A stretch of 64,000 bases of DNA from the NCBI GenBank assembly GCA_963580285.1, contig OY757015.1:149170082-149234081 (forward strand), written 5' to 3'. The translations under genes and the position numbers were made by a program. Below, piece after piece: positions 9,917-51,581 of this stretch; within the stretch, counting starts at the first letter, position 1; each line of letters starts with the position of its first letter. This DNA is from Lucinisca nassula. Taxonomy: Eukaryota; Mollusca; Bivalvia; Lucinida; Lucinidae. Under the pieces are notes generated by a model. The model saw nothing but the letters and a program-made list of their open reading frames with translations. It had not been told where the DNA came from and did no database searches.

Positions 9917-11130
9917 AAGTAGAAGTAAAACAAAGATCAGGAATCGATACAATTAACTTACTCCACTCATGAAGCGACCTGACCATAATGGAAACCTAAA
10001 CAAAGGAAGGCCATAAGGACAGTAACTTTCCCACAAAATGGCCAAATGGCCATCCAAAATAAAAAGACACAAGTGATACACACAGTAAGTAACAAACAAC
10101 AACATAAATAAACCGCCACAGAAGAACCGCCTTGGAACGGTCAGTGGAAAGAATTCCACGGTGGGGGGGGGGGGCTTAAATCGATTTTACGTGGCCACAA
10201 TCCTCGCCCTTACTCCCGCCGCGACTTAGACAAATAATTTGTTTGTTCAGTCCGCATGAAGGCCTCCTAACTCATCAGTGCAACATCTCCGTGAACACAA
10301 ATAATCAAAGAACCATAGAGCTGAGACAACGGTGAGAACTCGACAGCAAGAAACCACTAAAATCCTGGAGCAAAAGAAAACCAACAGTTAGACTCCGATG
10401 GGCCCAACCAGAGACAGAGCATCAGGCACCAACCAACATTACCTTGAATTAGATCTCTCTAATTCTCAATAAGCATTTACGTTGGAACCGTCATAGAATC
10501 TGAGGCCTGACCCACCGGCGTTCAATTAAAGAGGGAAGCAAAGTTGCCAACCGTGATTGGGTTAACTACCATGCATGCAGTCTGTCGTATAACATCCATG
10601 TTGTACTCAATCTTTTTATATTGAAGAATGATTTTACGAAATTGGGTGCTGAAGTCATTGCGGTTATATATTTTTCTGAATTTATATACTAAGTCACCAT
10701 AAAATTCTGGTTCGGTAGACCTTGTTGCAGAAGAGATTTAAGTCCAATATGGAATTTTGAAATTAAATCAGAATGGCGTTCATAAAATTTTGAAAGGGCT
10801 TTGCGTAGTTTATGGTACCGATAACCCTGATTAAGAAGTTTAGCTGTTAATAATTTATTACGAGTGTTGAAGTCAGTTACATGACTACACACTCTAGCAA
10901 ATCGAATTAGTTGCGAAATATAAACGCCATAGGATGGCGCACGAGGAACATCACCATCCAAAAAAGGAAAATTTATAATCTCAAAATCAAAGTCATCGCG
11001 TTTATTATAAATTTTGCAAGAAACAAATCCATCTACAATAGATAAATGGGGCCTCCAAAAAGGGGGCCTCGGTATCAGAGGAATTTACCTTGTTTAACTG
11101 AAGTTCTAGGGCATAAATCCGACTGATCAA
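9917..11130 (-). mobile_element. Penelope-like element fragment, copy a (unedited)
   Basis: On the minus strand this is the 3' part of a Penelope-like element. It holds the C-terminal part of the RT ORF (10,689-10,961 reads VPRAPSYGVYISQLIRFARV and onward), a 3' UTR, and the shared 3' end ending ACTTCTACTT at 9,917. Its 5' edge abuts the 3' end of copy b at 11,131, giving a head-to-tail tandem, which is common for PLEs. Frameshifts interrupt the ORF near 10,690 and 10,960. It retains the A-rich sense strand and so serves as a reference for the altered copy b. Confidence 0.8.
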
Positions 11131-13138
11131 AGTAGAAGTAAAACAAAGATCAGGAATCGATACAATTAACTTACTCCTCCCATCAAAGACACCAAAGGGA
11201 AAGAAACACAAACATTAAGCGACCAGACCATAATGGAAACCTAAACAAAGGAAGGCCACAAGGACAGCCACTTTCCCACAAATTGGCCATATGGCCATCC
11301 AAAATAAAAAGACACAAGCGACACACACAGCAAGCAACAAACAACAACATAAATAAACCGCCACAGAAGAACCGCCCCGGAACGGCCAGCGGAAAGACCC
11401 CCACTGGGGGACCCAAATCGACCCCACACGGCCACAATCCTCGCCCTTACTTCCGTCGCGATTTAGACAAATAACCCGCCCAGCCCGCACGAAGGCCCCC
11501 AACCCACCAGTGCAACATCCCCGTGAACACAAAAAATCAAAGAACCACAGAGATGAGACAACGGTGAGGACTCGACAGCAAGAAACCACCGAAACGCCGT
11601 GCAAAAGAAAACCAACAGCCAGACCCCGACGGGCCCAACCAGAGACAGAGCACCAGGCACCAACCAACATTACCAAGAACTAGATCCCTCCAAATCCCAA
11701 TAAGCCCCCACGCCGGAGCCGCCACAGAATCCGAGGCCCGACCCACCGGCGCGCAACCAAAGAGGGAAGCAAAGCCGCCAACCGCGACTGGGCCAGCCAC
11801 CACGCATGCAGCCTGCCGCACAACACTCATGTTGCACCCAATCTTCCCACACCGAAGAATGATTTTACGAAATTGGGTGCTGAAGTCATTGCGGTCATAT
11901 ACCTTTCTGAATCTACACACCAAGTCACCATAAAATTCGGGTTCCGATAGACCTTGCCGCAGAAGAGACCCAAGCCCAACATTGAATTTTGAAACCAAAC
12001 CAGAATGGCGTCCATAAAACCCTGAAAATGCCCCGCGTAGTTTATGGTACCGACAACCCCGATTAAGGAGCCCAGCCGTTAATAATTCACTACGAGTGTT
12101 GAAGTCAGTCACATGACCACACACTCTAGCAAATCGAACCAACTGCGAAACATAAACGCCACAGGACGGCGCACGAGGAACACCACCACCCAAAAAAGGA
12201 AAACCCACAACCCCAAAACCAAAGCCACCGCGTCCACCACAAACCCTGCACGAAACAAACCCATCTACAATAGATAGATGTAAATCCAAAAACGGGGCCC
12301 CGGTATCAGAAGACTTTGCCTTACCCAACCGAAGCCCTGGGGGGCAAACCCGACCGATCAAACCATCGAAATAGGCAAAGTAAGTATTGTCAATATTTAA
12401 TAAATCATCTAAATATCTAGAAGTAGAGCTAAAAGCTTCAATAATTTCAGATTGGTTATCAATGGAAAGCGACAACATGAAGTCGCTTTCATAACAATAC
12501 AAGAACAGATCAGCCACAAGAGGTGCGCAATTCGTACCCATCGGAATACCCACAATTTGTCTAAATAATATTGTCAAGTAGAAAGGTGAGTGCATCACAC
12601 ACTTTCTGATATGACCAAAGTTTATAATTCTTACGCTCTTTAGAAGTGAAAAATGCATTTCTGACATTACATGCAAGATAGAGAGAATCTTCTCTGTGAA
12701 AAGCCCATTCAATTAAATCAATAAGCTTTTCTTTTATAAGATTATGGGGAAGTGTAGTGTAAAGAGTGGAAAAATCGAAAGAAGACAGACTTGAGGCACG
12801 AAACGTCTGGATTTCAATTTATTTAAAACCTCATTCGATTTTTTTATAGACCAAAACAGATTTCTTCCTGATCTTTCAAAGACTTTATCACAATATTTAA
12901 TCACATGTGTTTTAATAGCAGTCAGACAGGAAGTTAATAATTTAGAAAGTTCAGTGGTAGTGCAAGAGCTAGAATTTGCAATAAACCGTGCTTTGTAAGG
13001 TCTTTTATGAAGTTTTGGTAACCAGTATAGCGTAGGAAGCTTGTCTTGGCCTTCTGTAACACACACAGCAAACTTGGTGGCTGAATGACAAATATGTTCA
13101 TCTACTATAGCTCTCTCTTCAGCTAAAGGCTGAAGTTC
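11131..13138 (-). mobile_element. Penelope-like element, copy b (A-to-G hypermutated)
   Basis: This is the longest 3' PLE copy in the fold-back element. It includes the RT N-terminal motif LPTLYWLPKLHK (about 13,020), the block QIVGIPMGTNCAPLVADLFL (about 12,530), the catalytic YLDDLL box (about 12,420), the C-terminal RT region and the full 3' end at 11,131. Between about 11,220 and 12,365 the plus strand shows dense T-to-C changes relative to copies a, c and d, meaning A-to-G on the sense strand. The rest, 12,366-13,138, is like the other copies. Confidence 0.85.
11700..13066 (-). pseudogene. PLE reverse transcriptase, frameshifted and hyper-edited
   Basis: The upstream frame (12,734-13,066) holds the PLE-typical LPKLHK and FIANSSSCTTTELSKLL motifs. 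A shift near 12,720-12,800 separates it from the frame holding GIPMGTNCAPL and YLDD. A deletion relative to copy d removes sequence near 12,570. From about 12,365 downstream the protein has been rewritten by K-to-G/R, D-to-G, N-to-G/S, Y-to-C, I-to-V, T-to-A and M-to-V changes, all explained by A-to-G in codons. The normal TAA stop seen in copy d (near 21,873) reads TGG here, so translation would run into the UTR. No GIY-YIG endonuclease is visible. Confidence 0.8.
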
Positions 13139-13692
13139 ATAGGCCTATATAGGCCTATATATAGAGTATATGTACTTTTTTGTGTGTGATAGTACTGCAG
13201 AGGAGCTCTTCTATGTGACAAGGGGCACTGATAGGAGTATATCTACTTTAGTATGTGTGGTAGTACTGCAGAGGAGCTCTTCTATATAACAAGGAGCACT
13301 GATAGGAGTATATCTACTTTGTTTTGTGTTATAGTACTACAGAGGAGCTCTTCTATACGACAAGGAACACAGATAGGAGTATATCTACTTAGTTATGTTT
13401 GGTAGTACTGCAGAGGAGCTCTTCTATTCAACAAGGAGCACTGATAGGAATATATATACTTTGTTGTATGTGGAAGTACTGCAGTGGAGCTCTTCTATAC
13501 GAACATGAGTACTGATAGGAGTATATCTACACTTTGTTGTATGGGGTAATACTGCAGAGGAGCACTTCTTTATGATAATGAGCACTGATAGGAGTATATC
13601 TACTTTATTATGTGTGGTAGCTCTGCAGTGGAGCTCTTCTATACGAACAGGAGCACTGATAGGAGTATGTTTATACTTTGTTGTATGTGGTA
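13139..13692 (+). repeat. 71-bp satellite array, segment 1 (plus)
   Basis: Units of 71 bp contain AGTACTGCAGAGGAGCTCTT then GATAGGAGTATATCTACTTT. Unit starts at 13,191, 13,262, 13,333 and 13,404 give the exact period. The array is interrupted by PLE copy c at 13,693 within a unit and resumes at 14,657. It forms the inner part of the left fold-back arm. Confidence 0.85.
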
Positions 13693-14656
13693 AAGTAGAA
13701 GTAAAACAAAGATCAGGAATTGATACAATTAACTTACTCCACCCATAAAAGACACCAAAGGGAAAGAAATACAAACATTAAGCGACCAGACCATAATGGA
13801 AACCTAAACAAAGGAAGGCCATAAGGACAGTTACTTTCCCACAAAATGGCCATATGGCCATCCAAAACCAAAAGACACAAGTGATACACACAGTAAGTAA
13901 CAAACAACAACATAAATAAATCGCCACAGAAGAGCCGCCTTGGAACGGTCAGTGGAAGATTTCCACTGGGGGGCTTAAATCGATTTTACGTGGCCACAAT
14001 CCTCGCCCTTACTTCCGTCGCGATTTAGACAAATAATTTGTTCAGTCCGCATGAAGGCCTCCTAACTCATCAGTGCAACATCTCCGTGAACACAAAAATC
14101 AAAGAACCACAGAGGTGAGACAACGGTGAGGACTCGACAGCAAGAAACCACTGAAATGCTGGAGCAAAAGAAAACCAACAGTTAGACTCCGATGAGCCCG
14201 ACCAGAGACAGAGCATCAGGCACCAACCAACATTATCTCTCTAATTTTCAATAAGCCTTTACGTTGGAGCCGTCATAGAATCTGAGGCCTGACCCACCGG
14301 CGTGCAATTAAAGAGGGAAGCAAAGTTGCCAACCGTGATTGGGTTAACTACCATGCATGCAGTCTGTCGTATAATATCCATGTTGTACCCAATCTTTTTA
14401 TATCGAAGAATGATTTTACGAAATTGGGTGCTGAAGTCATTGCGGTTATATATTTTTCTGAATTTATATACTAAGTCACCATAAAATTCAGGTTCCGATA
14501 GACCTTGTTGTAGAAGAGATTTAAGTCCAATATTGAATTTTGAAATTAAATCAGAATGGCGTCTATAAAATTTTGAAAAGGCTTTGCGTAGTTTATGGTA
14601 CCGATAACCCTGATTAAGGAGTTTAGCCGTTAATAATTTATTACGAGTGTTGAAGT
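13693..14656 (-). mobile_element. Penelope-like element fragment, copy c
   Basis: This is a 5'-truncated PLE 3' portion inserted into the 71-bp array. It carries the common 3' end and UTR plus about 370 bp of RT C-terminal coding sequence, breaking off at 14,656 where the satellite unit resumes (CTGCAGAGGAGCAC). The interrupted unit lost only a few bases. It is A-rich on the sense strand and nearly identical to copy d, so both are recent and unedited. Confidence 0.8.
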
Positions 14657-15756
14657 CTGCAGAGGAGCACTTCTATATGACAATGAGCACTGGTAGTAGT
14701 ATATATACTTTGTTGTATGTGATAGTACTGCAAAAGAGCTCTTCTATACGACAAGGGGCACTGATAGGAGTATATCTACTTTGTTATGTGTGATAGAACT
14801 ACAGTGCAGCTCTTCTATACGACATGGTGCACTGATAGGAGTATATTTGTATATCTACTTTATTATATGTGGTTGTACTGCAGAGGAGCACTTCTATACA
14901 AGGATCACTGATAGGAGTGTATATACTATGTTTTATGTGATAGTACTACAGAGGAGCTCTTCTATACGTGAAGGTCTTCTATACGACAAGGGGAACTGAT
15001 AAGAGTACAGTTGTGCTAACACGAAGCCTTCTGTTATGTGCACTGTGTCCACTACATAGTGCACTAAGAATGTATAAAATAACAGGGATAAACACACTTG
15101 TTAGTGCACTCCATGTTCATTAGGGCGGAACCTGTCGTCTTAGCACAACTGTGTATATACTTTGTTATGCCTGATAGTACTGCAGAGGAGCTGTAATATA
15201 TGACTAGGAGAACTTATAGGAGTATATCTACTTTGTTGTGTGAGGTAATACTACAGAAGAGCTCTTCTATACAAGGAGCACTGATATTATATCTACTTTA
15301 TTATGTGTGGTAGTGCTGCAGAGGAGCTCTTCTATACAACAAGGAGCACTGATAGGAGTACATCTACTTTGTTGTATGTGGTAGTACTGCAGTGGAGCTC
15401 TTCTATACGAACATGAGCACTGATAGGAGTATATCTACATTTGTACTTTGTTGTATGAGGTAATACTGTAGAGGAGCACTTCTATATGACAATGAACACT
15501 GATAGGAGTATATCTACTTTATTATGTGTGGTAGTACTGCAGAGGAGCTCTTCTATACAACAAGGAGCACTGATAGGAGTATATCTACTTTGTTATGTGT
15601 GATAGTACTGCAGAGGAGCTCTTCTATACGACAAGGGGCACTGATAGAAGTATATCTACTTTGTTATGTGAGGTAGTACTACGGAGGAGCTCTTCTATAT
15701 AACACGGAGCACTGATAGGAGTATATCTACTTTATTATGTGTGGTAGTACTGCAGA
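14657..15756 (+). repeat. 71-bp satellite array, segment 2 (plus)
   Basis: The plus-oriented 71-bp units continue, with occasional shorter units of about 55 bp and an inserted MITE at 15,008-15,151. The array ends abruptly at about 15,756, after GTAGTACTGCAGACTAAGTA, where orientation flips. The units resemble the outer-arm units, so the whole arm probably derives from one ancestral repeat. Confidence 0.85.
15008..15151. mobile_element. MITE with CAGTTGTGC termini in the array
   Basis: A 144-bp insertion interrupts a 71-bp unit. Its ends are inverted repeats, CAGTTGTGCTAA and TTAGCACAACTG. Comparison with neighbouring units suggests insertion at TA, with the right-hand copy now TG. CAGT-type ends and a TA target suit a Tc1/mariner-derived MITE. 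Internal sequence is non-coding. Confidence 0.65.
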
Positions 15757-17344
15757 CTAAGTAGATATACTCCTGTCAGTGCCCCTTGTTGTATAGAAGA
15801 GCTTAACTGCAGTACTAGCACACATAACTAAGTAGATATACTCCTATCAGAGCTCCCTGTCATATAGAATAGCTTCACTGCAGTACTACCAGACATAACA
15901 ATGTTGATTTACTTCTATAAGTGCTCCTGTTCAAATAGAAGCACTCCTCTGTAGTACTACCACACATAATAAAGTAGATATACTCCTATCAATGCTCCTT
16001 TTCGTAAAGAAGAGCTCCTCTTCAGTACTACCAACATAATAAAGCAGATATACTCCTATCAGTGCTCATTGTCGTATAGAAGAGCTCCTCTGCAGTACTA
16101 CCACACATACTAAAGTAGACATACTCCTATTAGTACTCCTTTTCGTAAAGAAGAGCTCCTCTGCAGTACTACCAACATAATAAAACAGATATACTCCTAT
16201 CAGTGCTCCTTGTATAGAAGAGCTCCTCTGCAGTACTACCACACATAATAAAGTAGATATACTCCTATCAGTGCTCATGTTCGTATAGAAGGGCTCCACT
16301 GCAGTACTACCACATACAACAAAGTATATATACTCCTATCAGTGCTCCTTGTCGTATAGAAGAGCTCCACTGTAGTTCTTCCACATATAACAAAGTAGGT
16401 ATACTTCTATCAGTGCCCATTGTTGTATAGAAGAGCTCCTCTGCAGTACTATTACACACAACAAAGTATATATATACTCGTTTCAGTGCTCATTGTCATA
16501 TAGAAGTGCTCCTCTGCAGAATTACCACATACAACAAAGTACAAATGTAGATATACTCCTATCAGTGCTCATGTTCGTATAGAAGAGCTCCACTGCAGTA
16601 CTACCACATATAACAAAGTATATATATTCCCATCAGTGCTCCTGGTCGAATAGAAGAGCTCCTCTGCAGTACTACCACACATAACTAAGTAGATATTCTC
16701 TTAGCAGTGCTCCTTGTCGTATAGAAGAGCTCCTCTGTAGTACTATCACACAAAACAAAGTAGATATACTCCTATCAGTGCTCCTTGTTGTATAGAAGAG
16801 CTCCTCTGCAGTACTACCACACATAATAAAGTATATATACTCCTATTAGTGCTCCATGTCGTATAGAAGAGCTCCTCTGTAGTTCTACCACACATAACAA
16901 AGTAGGTATACTCCTATCAGTGCCCCTTGTCGTATAGAAGAGCTCCTCTGCAGTACTATCACACACAACAAAGTATATATACTCCTATCATTGCTCATAG
17001 TCATACAGAAGTGCTCCTCTGCAGTATTACCACATACAACAAAGTACAAATGTACTCCTATCAGTGTACCTGTTCTTATAGAAGAGCTCCACTGCAGTAC
17101 TACCACACAAAATAAAGTAGATATACTCCTATCCGTGCCCATTGTCATATAGTACACATGTAGATATGCTCCTATCAGTGCTCATGTTCGTATAGAAGAG
17201 CACCACTGCAGTACTACCACATACAACAAAGTATATATATTCCTATCAGCGCTCTTTGTCGAATAGAAGAGCTCCTCTGCAGTACTACCACACATAACTA
17301 AGTAGATATACTCCTATCAGTGCTCCTTGTCGTATAGAAGAGCA
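15757..17344 (-). repeat. 71-bp satellite array, inverted half
   Basis: The same 71-bp unit is present on the opposite strand (GATATACTCCTATCAGTGCT then AGAAGAGCTCCTCTGCAGTA), about 22 units. It pairs with 13,139-15,756. Short runs that look like ORFs through this array are read-through of repeats. Two units near 16,540 and 17,045 carry an extra GTACAAATGTA insertion, showing higher-order homogenisation. Confidence 0.85.
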
Positions 17345-21301: not shown

Positions 21302-21307
21302 AAGAAA

Positions 21308-23197
21308 AGTAGAAGTAAAACAAAGATCAGGAATTGATACAATTAACTTACTCCACCCATAAAAGACACCAAAGGGAAAGAAATACAAACACTAAGCGAC
21401 CAGACCATAATGGAAACCTAAACAAAGGAAGGCCATAAGGACAGTTACTTTCCCACAAAATGGCCATATGGCCATCCAAAACCAAAAAAAACAAGTGATA
21501 CACACAGTAAGTAACAAACAACAACATAAATAAATCGCCACAGAAGAGCCGCCTTGGAACGGTCAGTGGAAGATTTCCACTGGGGGGCTTAAATCGATTT
21601 TACGTGGCCACAATCCTCGCCCTTACTTCCGTCGCGATTTAGACAAATAATTTGTTCAGTCCGCATGAAGGCCTCCTAACTCATCAGTGCAACATCTCCG
21701 TGAACACAAAAATCAAAGAACCACTGAGGTGAGACAACGGTGAGGACTCGACAGCAAGAAACCACTGAAATGCTGGAGCAAAAGAAAACCAACAGTTAGA
21801 CTCCGATGAACCCGACCAGAGACAGAGCATCAGGCACCAACCAACATTATCTCTCTAATTTTCAATAAGCCTTTACGTTGGAGCCGTCATAGAATCTGAG
21901 GCCTGACCCACCGGCGTGCAATTAAAGAGGGAAGCAAAGTTGCCAACCGTGATTGGGTTAACTACCATGCATGCAGTCTGTCGTATAATATCCATGTTGT
22001 ACCCAATCTTTTTATATCGAAGAATGATTTTACGAAATTGGGTGCTGAAGTCATTGCGGTTATATATTTTTCTGAATTTATATACTAAGTCACCATAAAA
22101 TTCGGGTTCCGATAGACCTTGTTGCAGAAGAGATTTAAGTCCAATATTGAATTTTGATATTAAATCAGAATGGCGTCTATAAAATTTTGAAAAGGCTTTG
22201 CGTAGTTGATGGTACCGATAACCCTGATTAAGGAGTTTAGCAGTTAATAATTTATTACGAGTGTTGAAGTCAGTTACATGACTACACACTCTAGCAAATC
22301 GAATTAATTGCGAAATATAAACGCCATATGATGGCGCACGAGGAACATCACCATCCAAAAAAGGAAAATTTACAATCTCAAAATCAAAGTCATCGCGTTT
22401 ATCATAAATTTTGCACGAAACAAATCCATCTACAATAGATAGATGTAAATCCAAAAACGGGGCCTCGGTATCAGAAGAATTTGCTTTATTTAACTGAAGT
22501 TCTAGGGGGTAAATCTGACTGATCAAACCATCAAAATAGGTATTATCAATATTTAATAAATCATCTAAATATCTAGAAGTAGAGCTAAAAGCTTCAATAA
22601 TTTCAGATTGGTAATCAATGGAAAGCGACAAAATGAAGTCTCTTTCATAACAATACAAGAACAGATCAGCCACAAGAGGTGCGCAATTAGTACCCATCGG
22701 AATACCCACAATTTGTCTAAATAACTTAGTACCGAATCTAATATAAATATTGTCAAGTAGAAAGGTGAGGGCATCACACACTTTCTAACATGACCAAAGT
22801 GTATAATTCTTATGCTCTTTAGAAGTGATAAATGCATTTCTGATATTACATGCAAGATAGAGAGAATCTTCTCTATGAAAAGCCCATTCAATTAAATCAT
22901 TAAGCTTTTCTTTTATAAGATTATGAGGAAGTGTAGTGTAAAGAGTGGAAAAATCGTAGGTAGACAGACTAGAAGCACGAAAATGTCTAGATTTCAATTT
23001 ATTTAAAACCTCATTCGAATTTTTTATAGACCAAAACAGATTTCTTCCTGATCTTTCAAAGACTTTATCACAATATTTAATTACATGCGTTTTAATAGCA
23101 GTAAGACAGGAAGTTAATAATTTAGAAAGTTCAGTGGTAGTGCAAGAGCTAGAATTTGCAATAAACCGTGCTTTGTAAGGTTTTTTATGAAGTTTTG
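21308..23197 (-). mobile_element. Penelope-like element, copy d, inserted in LINE-2
   Basis: A 1.9-kb 5'-truncated PLE flanked by the 6-bp direct repeat AAGAAA at 21,302-21,307 and 23,198-23,203. Removing it brings the LINE-2 RT frame back into register. It holds RT coding sequence from the LHKKPYKARFIANSS region to the C-terminus, then a UTR and the common PLE 3' end. It is the best unedited reference for the family in this window. Confidence 0.85.
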
Positions 23198-51272: not shown

Positions 51273-51350
51273 TAAACATACAATTTCTAATACATACTTC
51301 TAAAACTAACATCCTGAAAAAAAACGTATTTCAAATTTAAATACACCGCT

Positions 51351-51581
51351 ACAGAAGTAAGGGCGAGGATTGTGGCCATGTAAAATTGATTTAAGCCCTC
51401 CCAGTGGAATTCTTTCCATCCCAGTGGAATTCTTTCCACTGACCCTTCCAAGGCGGTTCTTCTGTGGCGGTTTCCATTATGGTCTGGTCGCTTCGTGTTT
51501 GTGTTTCTATCCCTGTGGTGTCTTTGGTGGGGGAGTAAGTTAATTGTATCGATTCCTGATCTTTGTTTTACTTCTACTTTA
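51351..51581 (+). mobile_element. Penelope-like element 3' fragment, copy e
   Basis: It contains only the UTR and 3' end of the PLE, in plus orientation, ending ACTTCTACTTTA. It has a 20-bp internal duplication (CCAGTGGAATTCTTTCCA twice) and a deletion relative to copies a-d. It inserted inside the Academ-like element and is therefore younger than it. Confidence 0.8.

What the first reader, a model, noticed from the sequence alone, without database searches (positions are those of the whole stretch)
11220..12365. A Penelope-like copy carrying a reverse-transcribed A-to-G (ADAR-type) hyper-editing scar
Seen directly: against copies a, c and d, copy b differs on the plus strand almost only by T-to-C, i.e. 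A-to-G on the element's sense strand. In 12,115-12,285 I count about 25 T-to-C changes and essentially no other difference not shared with a reference copy. At protein level, roughly 50 changes in the RT C-terminus are nearly all K-to-R/G/E, D/E-to-G, N-to-S/D/G, Y-to-C, I/M-to-V, T-to-A or Q-to-R. Retained T bases are often followed by C, so the unedited sense A is often preceded by G, which is the ADAR 5'-neighbour bias. The altered block has edges: 12,366-13,138 is normal. Inference: PLE RNA was edited in a duplex, then reverse-transcribed and inserted, fossilising RNA editing in DNA. GC-biased conversion would not be strand-specific, and APOBEC acts in the other direction.
Basis: partly seen in the sequence, partly recalled or inferred. 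Interest (0 to 1): 0.93.

Follow-up and report, generated by a model that had tools for sequence, protein, structure and literature searches.

The report
RNA-editing scars in jumping genes
In this genome more than two hundred copies of one jumping gene carry dense, one-way A-to-G changes, most likely because the host's RNA-editing enzyme altered the gene's RNA before it was copied back into DNA, which would make RNA editing a cause of inherited mutation.

Summary
In copy b, T>C on the plus strand (A>G on the element's sense strand) hits 139 of 266 reference T between 11,221 and 12,355; all other changes number 13 in 1,076 sites.

It is not one odd copy. A 31-base site of the element occurs 22,055 times in the 2.93-Gb genome. 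212 places carry at least four T>C there; matching A>G, C>T and G>A patterns give 0. The first 30 listed copies are all unedited, and homologous proteins agree that T is ancestral.

In 32 copies fetched from the 212, sense A after G is edited least (.416; U .640, A .593, C .552; permutation p=5e-5), the rule reported for mollusc ADAR1 (PMC6651903, passages). Edited stretches end at different points in different copies, with no shared patterns. The genome encodes an ADAR2-like deaminase. A protein very likely from another genome shows the same one-way pattern.

Best reading: ADAR edited sense RNA in partial duplexes before reverse transcription and insertion. No RNA data were available.

The parts
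11129..12362 (-). Copy b (edited part): Penelope-like RT C-terminus and 3' region, sense strand minus; T>C on plus = A>G on sense
   Evidence: T>C 145 of 290 T versus A>G 1 of 439 A against unedited copies
11207..12355 (-). Edited block in b: first to last site of the best three-segment fit (140 of 264 T sites changed)
12363..13140 (-). Unedited upstream stretch joined to b; same element, either the 5' part of b or the other half of the older copy a
   Evidence: 3 T>C in 645 sites compared; divergence does not decide between the two (p=0.09 and 0.14)
9917..11131 (-). Copy a, unedited, 5'-truncated; head-to-tail with b; its truncation point equals b about 12,359-12,362
13692..14657 (-). Copy c, unedited, 5'-truncated in a 71-bp satellite
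21306..23197 (-). Copy d, unedited; open frame 21,873-22,784 encodes the RT part with RYLDD; used as coordinate system
51347..51580 (+). Copy e, inverted scraps of the element 3' end

Best explanation
Copy b and at least 212 other copies of the same element carry dense A-to-G changes on the sense strand alone, and these most likely arose because sense RNA of the element was A-to-I edited by the host's ADAR while part of it was paired with antisense RNA, and was then reverse-transcribed and inserted. Shown: the one-strand A>G spectrum, the ancestral state, edited stretches that differ from copy to copy, the absence of the three control cluster types at the tested site, the 5'-G avoidance, and an ADAR2-like gene in the genome. 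Inferred: that ADAR did it, that the partner was antisense RNA in trans (for instance a transcript running backwards through a 5'-truncated copy), and that intact element protein supplied in trans did the copying. The last ~55 nt at the element's 3' end are rarely edited (16 of 571 cells), so they were probably outside the duplex, or are needed intact for reverse transcription.
For: Spectrum: 58 edited copies, T>C 4,690, A>G 169, other 1,054, in 61,162 sites; 30 unedited copies T>C 74, A>G 57, other 387 in 32,501 sites. Copy L003: 183 T>C, 1 A>G, 1 other in 1,205 sites. Strand control: 212 versus 0; C>T 0; G>A 0. Polarity: the first 30 listed copies are unedited; at 76 residues where b differs from d, the majority of 120 homologues equals d at 58, b at 6, neither at 12. 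Context: 5' neighbour T .640, A .593, C .552, G .416, with no significant 3' effect; in another set of 29 copies, b among them, T .381, A .372, C .323, G .256. This matches mollusc ADAR1 (PMC6651903, passages). In zones with a local rate above 25%, 57% of 7,675 T cells are changed. Partial blocks with clean remainders, e.g. L080 39/64 inside versus 2/227 outside; L008 0/187 upstream, L011 and L027 nearly clean upstream. No inverted repeat of 14 or more inside copy d, so no internal hairpin was found. ADAR2-like exon: E 3e-83 to human ADAR2; PF02137 matches at several places.
Against: In b alone the neighbour context is flat. Neighbouring A are edited together (66 of 80 concordant at distance 1), although an edited 5' neighbour should act like G and slow the next A. 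Editing is patchy: a two-state fit splits copies into 1 to 12 edited stretches each, so one duplex with one edge is a simplification. No RNA reads were examined. No antisense transcript was seen. The LINE family tested at one site has 0 clusters in 2,477 places where about 24 would be expected at the same rate, so something makes this element special and I do not know what.
Confidence: 0.87

Rival explanations
1. Mutagenic reverse transcription: the element's enzyme, or a dNTP imbalance, puts C opposite template A in bursts, without any editing of RNA.
For: Also gives one-strand A>G in new copies; adjacent A change together and edited stretches alternate with short clean ones.
Against: Other changes at the same A stay rare (plus-strand T>A 103 and T>G 41 against T>C 2,291 in 32 copies), unlike the adenine mutagenesis of diversity-generating retroelements (recalled). 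The 5'-G avoidance follows ADAR. About half or more of the A change in edited zones while 30 of 30 sampled copies are clean, which asks for an all-or-none state of the enzyme.
Confidence: 0.06
2. A deaminase acted on DNA or on an RNA:DNA hybrid during insertion, rather than on free RNA.
For: The end product would also be A>G on one strand.
Against: Only the sense strand is hit at the tested site (212 versus 0). The sense RNA of the hybrid is not copied again, and second-strand DNA would have to be the target (inference). Clean ends inside copies do not follow from a hybrid that spans the whole template.
Confidence: 0.03
3. b belongs to an old C-rich subfamily and a, c, d are the derived ones.
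For: At 6 of 76 residues most homologues side with b.
Against: 30 of 30 sampled copies have T; homologues side with d at 58 of 76 residues; edited copies do not share patterns (largest phi 0.57 in 1,306 comparable pairs of 1,711); some have only 1-3 other changes, so they look young.
Confidence: 0.01
4. Assembly or base-calling artefact.
For: Dense single-type clusters can come from sequencing error: PMC2873906 (passages) reports a systematic G-to-A error in old traces.
Against: 212 places, one strand of the element in both genome orientations (94 forward, 118 reverse), clean stretches within the same copies, ADAR context, and a like protein very likely from another genome.
Confidence: 0.02
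5. For b alone: the edited part (11,129-12,362) is a separate insertion inside an older copy whose halves are a and 12,363-13,140, so the right edge is an insertion junction and not a duplex end.
For: The edge (12,355-12,366) falls where copy a is truncated (12,359-12,362). Divergence without T>C: a 3.3%, upstream 2.0%, edited part 1.0%.
Against: The differences are not significant (p=0.09 and 0.14). Other copies, e.g. L008, L011, L027, have edges inside a copy with no second copy found in the 1.5-kb flanks fetched.
Confidence: 0.4

Closest known systems
ADAR A-to-I hyper-editing of double-stranded RNA
   Same: Nearly only A>G, about half of the A in edited zones, 5'-G avoided, no clear 3' rule as in mollusc ADAR1 (PMC6651903, passages)
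   Different: There the marks are in RNA; here they sit in hundreds of DNA copies
APOBEC3 DNA editing of retrotransposons (mouse IAP, human HERV; PMC2873906, passages)
   Same: A deaminase leaves clustered one-type changes in retroelement insertions
   Different: Opposite chemistry: the C>T and G>A cluster patterns give 0 here; the edited molecule would be RNA before copying, not minus-strand cDNA
A-to-G biased hypermutation of RNA viruses and some retroviruses (recalled, no call)
   Same: Dense A>G in one strand, credited to ADAR
   Different: Episodic in virus stocks; here a standing record of many events in one host genome
Adenine mutagenesis by diversity-generating retroelements (recalled, no call)
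   Same: Change at template A in a retro-copied block
   Different: There A goes to any base; here almost only to G; accessory genes were not looked for

Membership tests
ADAR-edited sequence | A>G almost alone, on the transcribed sense strand | tested here: met
   the sense strand is taken from the RT frame
ADAR-edited sequence | 5' neighbour order U, A > C > G | tested here: met
   (pooled copies); not visible in b alone
ADAR-edited sequence | 3' neighbour G favoured (vertebrate rule, recalled) | tested here: inconclusive
   no 3' base significant; PMC6651903 (passages) reports no strong 3' preference in molluscs
ADAR-edited sequence | An ADAR gene in the host | tested here: met
   the roles of the HAE, PCG and SC motifs are recalled
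ADAR-edited sequence | Edited RNA and a duplex partner in the cell | not testable with these tools
   No RNA-seq held; no inverted repeat of 14 or more within copy d
APOBEC-edited retroelement | Clusters of sense G>A (plus-strand C>T here) | tested here: not met
   0 places at one 31-base site; plus-strand G>A also 0
Penelope-like element | Reverse transcriptase with YLDD motif | tested here: met
   RYLDD in frame in d and b; motif meaning recalled; no Pfam hit for d's frame, while some homologues carry PF00078
Penelope-like element | Head-to-tail arrays | tested here: met
   a and b in tandem; matches to a related protein spaced about 4,151 bases, e.g. C3:351505, 355656, 359807
Penelope-like element | GIY-YIG endonuclease domain | not tested
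   The full-length element was not read
Penelope-like element | Hammerhead ribozyme motif (many, not all; recalled) | tested here: inconclusive
   No Rfam hit for it in the window at gathering score, but the window copies are 5'-truncated

The most novel reading that the evidence does not exclude
RNA editing is a heritable hypermutator: ADAR acts on this retrotransposon's RNA before insertion, an RNA-level counterpart of APOBEC3, scarring about 1% of some 22,000 copies in many separate germline events, and the same happens to other Penelope-like families in other genomes.
Probability: 0.75. Interest if true: 0.93.

Novelty: new variant of a known kind. Interest (0 to 1): 0.88.

Why it matters
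If true, A-to-I editing, usually thought of as leaving the genome untouched (recalled), writes many inherited mutations through reverse transcription, and the scars are a countable record of germline duplex formation. Each scar would mark where a retrotransposon RNA was paired, so the antisense partners of a transposon family could be mapped from DNA alone. It also makes a direct test possible of whether ADAR restrains retrotransposons in the germline.

Tried and rejected
An ancestral C-rich subfamily was rejected by 30 of 30 unedited copies and by homologous proteins. APOBEC-type and opposite-strand clusters gave 0 places each at one site. Selection on codons in b was not seen. A hairpin inside copy d was not found. 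A nested insertion of the edited part into copy a was considered; divergence could not decide it. Relatives in viral and prokaryote contigs: none confirmed. Pfam gave nothing for the RT of d, and PDB one chance-level match. The LINE of the window showed no A>G cluster in 2,477 places at one site; its T>C counterpart was not run. A second site of the element upstream of 12,362 could not be searched. A search with unedited copy d as DNA did not complete and was dropped. The Fisher value that one search prints for b used wrong cell counts and is not used; one search replaces it. In one search the one-block fit is turned round for L070, L073 and L085 (the 'block' is the less edited part); they were left in. 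In some searches L014 and L025 were left out because their best alignment fell on an unedited neighbour copy. The 30 unedited copies (L031-L060) are the first places listed, all in the first 1.2 Mb of contig C1, and the column majority against which they are scored was taken from them.

Full report
What was claimed.

The window. Copies of one element lie at 9,917-11,131 (a), 11,129 to about 13,140 (b), 13,692-14,657 (c) and 21,306-23,197 (d), all in one orientation, with inverted scraps at 51,347-51,580.

The observation. Where a, c and d agree, b has T>C at 139 of 266 T between 11,221 and 12,355 and 13 changes of all other kinds in 1,076 sites; beyond the block T>C is 5 of 203, with 23 others. 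The best three-segment fit puts the block at 11,207-12,355. Synonymous, nonsynonymous and non-coding A are hit alike (27/53, 69/132, 44/79).

The genome. The window lies in a 2.93-Gb assembly. Of the 29 fetched best matches other than b itself, 28 (L002-L029) are also rich in T>C, 43 to 189 each; L030 is not. That set was picked by likeness to b, so I counted without such bias. A 31-base pattern with Y for every T finds 22,055 exact places, and none when read backwards; of the 100 places it lists, one carries all eight T>C. The first 30, all in the first 1.2 Mb of C1, are unedited over their length: T>C 74, A>G 57, other 387 in 32,501 sites. Forcing C at four of the eight T gives 212 places, 94 forward and 118 reverse. 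Forcing four A>G gives 0, four C>T 0, four G>A 0. So about 1% of copies carry such a cluster at this site, of one type and one strand. b itself is not among the 212, because it has another change inside the 31 bases.

Independent sample. I fetched 32 of the 212: T>C 2,291, all other types 866; some of these copies are old and carry ordinary changes too. Outside the 31-mer T>C is 2,052 and A>G 132. Editing rate by sense 5' neighbour: T .640, A .593, C .552, G .416. The lack after G has permutation p=5e-5 over 273 sites, 56 of them after G; no 3' neighbour is significant. The same 5' order is seen in the 29 copies (b and L002-L029). For oyster and abalone ADAR1, PMC6651903 (passages) reports T, A or C upstream, GA weak, and no strong downstream preference.

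Blocks and independence. Along the element each edited copy has its own range: L027 edited to about 600 and nearly clean after, L011 to about 900, L008 to about 1,200-1,350, L024 mainly 900-1,200, L010 clean for the first 300 and edited beyond. Within the range editing is patchy: a two-state fit gives 73.5% in edited and 2.9% in clean stretches, with 1 to 12 edited stretches per copy. Over 59 copies, 1,306 of 1,711 pairs had at least 40 shared T sites in edited zones; their largest correlation is 0.57 and the median 0.17, so none of those pairs looks like two copies of one edited parent. Some are young by their other changes: L080 has 41 T>C and 1 other change, L003 183 and 2. The last ~55 nt of the element's 3' end are rarely edited (16 of 571 cells).

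Direction. The best 120 of 7,999 homologous proteins mostly carry d's residue rather than b's: majority d at 58, b at 6, neither at 12 of 76 sites.

Other genomes. Among 156 homologous proteins listed by two searches, eight show an excess of A>G-type residue changes over the reverse of 12 or more, e.g. P0147 45 to 7 and P0139 41 to 3; P0137 is the weakest, 21 to 9. Against its nearest relatives P0147 has 51-52 such changes and 1 to 3 reverse. Its best match in the window's own genome is only 69% identical (86 of 126,973 candidates scored), so it very likely comes from another genome. The species is not shown by the tool. The other seven were not searched in the own genome.

The enzyme. The adenosine-deaminase family PF02137 matches at several places in the genome. 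Two stretches on C12 cover it; the first matches human ADAR2 with E 3e-83 and keeps HAE, PCG and SC (roles of these residues recalled).

Specificity. The window's LINE has 2,477 places at one site and none with four forced A>G; about 24 would be expected at the rate of the Penelope-like element. One site of one family is not a survey.

Mechanism. Most likely sense RNA paired over part of its length with antisense RNA, ADAR changed more than half of the A in the paired part, and reverse transcription and insertion fixed I as G. An internal hairpin was not found. The antisense strand of the duplex, which ADAR would edit too, is not found in DNA at the tested site, as expected if only sense RNA is a template. 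That the element's protein acts in trans on edited RNA is inferred: the scarred frame of b is full of replacements. Penelope-like elements stand in tandem and can insert into their own sequence (PMC11167929, passages), which fits a-b. In b the right edge coincides with the truncation of a, so the edited part may be an insertion into the older copy a plus 12,363-13,140; divergence leaves this open.

What is known. In seven searches of the open library (capped listings with titles and starts of abstracts) I saw no report of A-to-G-scarred retrotransposon copies in a genome. PMC2873906 (passages) looked for A-to-G and G-to-A clusters in sequence traces; it reports APOBEC-type DNA editing of retrotransposons in mouse and human, and A-to-G editing in RNA-derived traces. 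PMC5974252 (passages), a review of editing and retrotransposons, had nothing on it in the three passages found. Subscription papers are mostly missing and preprints are not held, so this is not proof of absence.

Noticed in passing
window 13164-17344: 71-bp satellite in two inverted arrays around 15,757; copies a-b and c of the element lie in or beside it.
   Followed up: partly
G000 C3:351505-361300, C10:143987381-144001327, C13:7890995-7896639: Head-to-tail arrays of open Penelope-like frames with a period of about 4,151 bases: likely recent tandem amplification in the same genome.
   Followed up: no
P0147, P0139, P0151, P0131, P0130, P0134, P0050: Predicted proteins in public databases that look like A>G-scarred Penelope-like frames; editing removes stop codons and so may keep frames open and put them into gene catalogues.
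   Followed up: partly
P0017, P0094: Penelope-like RT proteins filed under Candidatus Thiodiazotropha bins, probably host (animal) DNA in bacterial bins; this symbiont's hosts are lucinid clams (recalled).
   Followed up: no
b-coordinates 11707-11800: Hot zone: at most T sites there about 60-90% of 29 copies are edited, against mostly 10-50% elsewhere (a set picked by likeness to b); cause unknown.
   Followed up: no
window 11129-11183 (element 3' end): T sites in the last ~55 nt of the element are rarely edited in 59 copies, 16 of 571 cells.
   Followed up: partly
G000 C12:39384709-39387478 and 39691323-39702336: Two ADAR-like genes in opposite orientation about 300 kb apart, a possible duplication.
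   Followed up: partly
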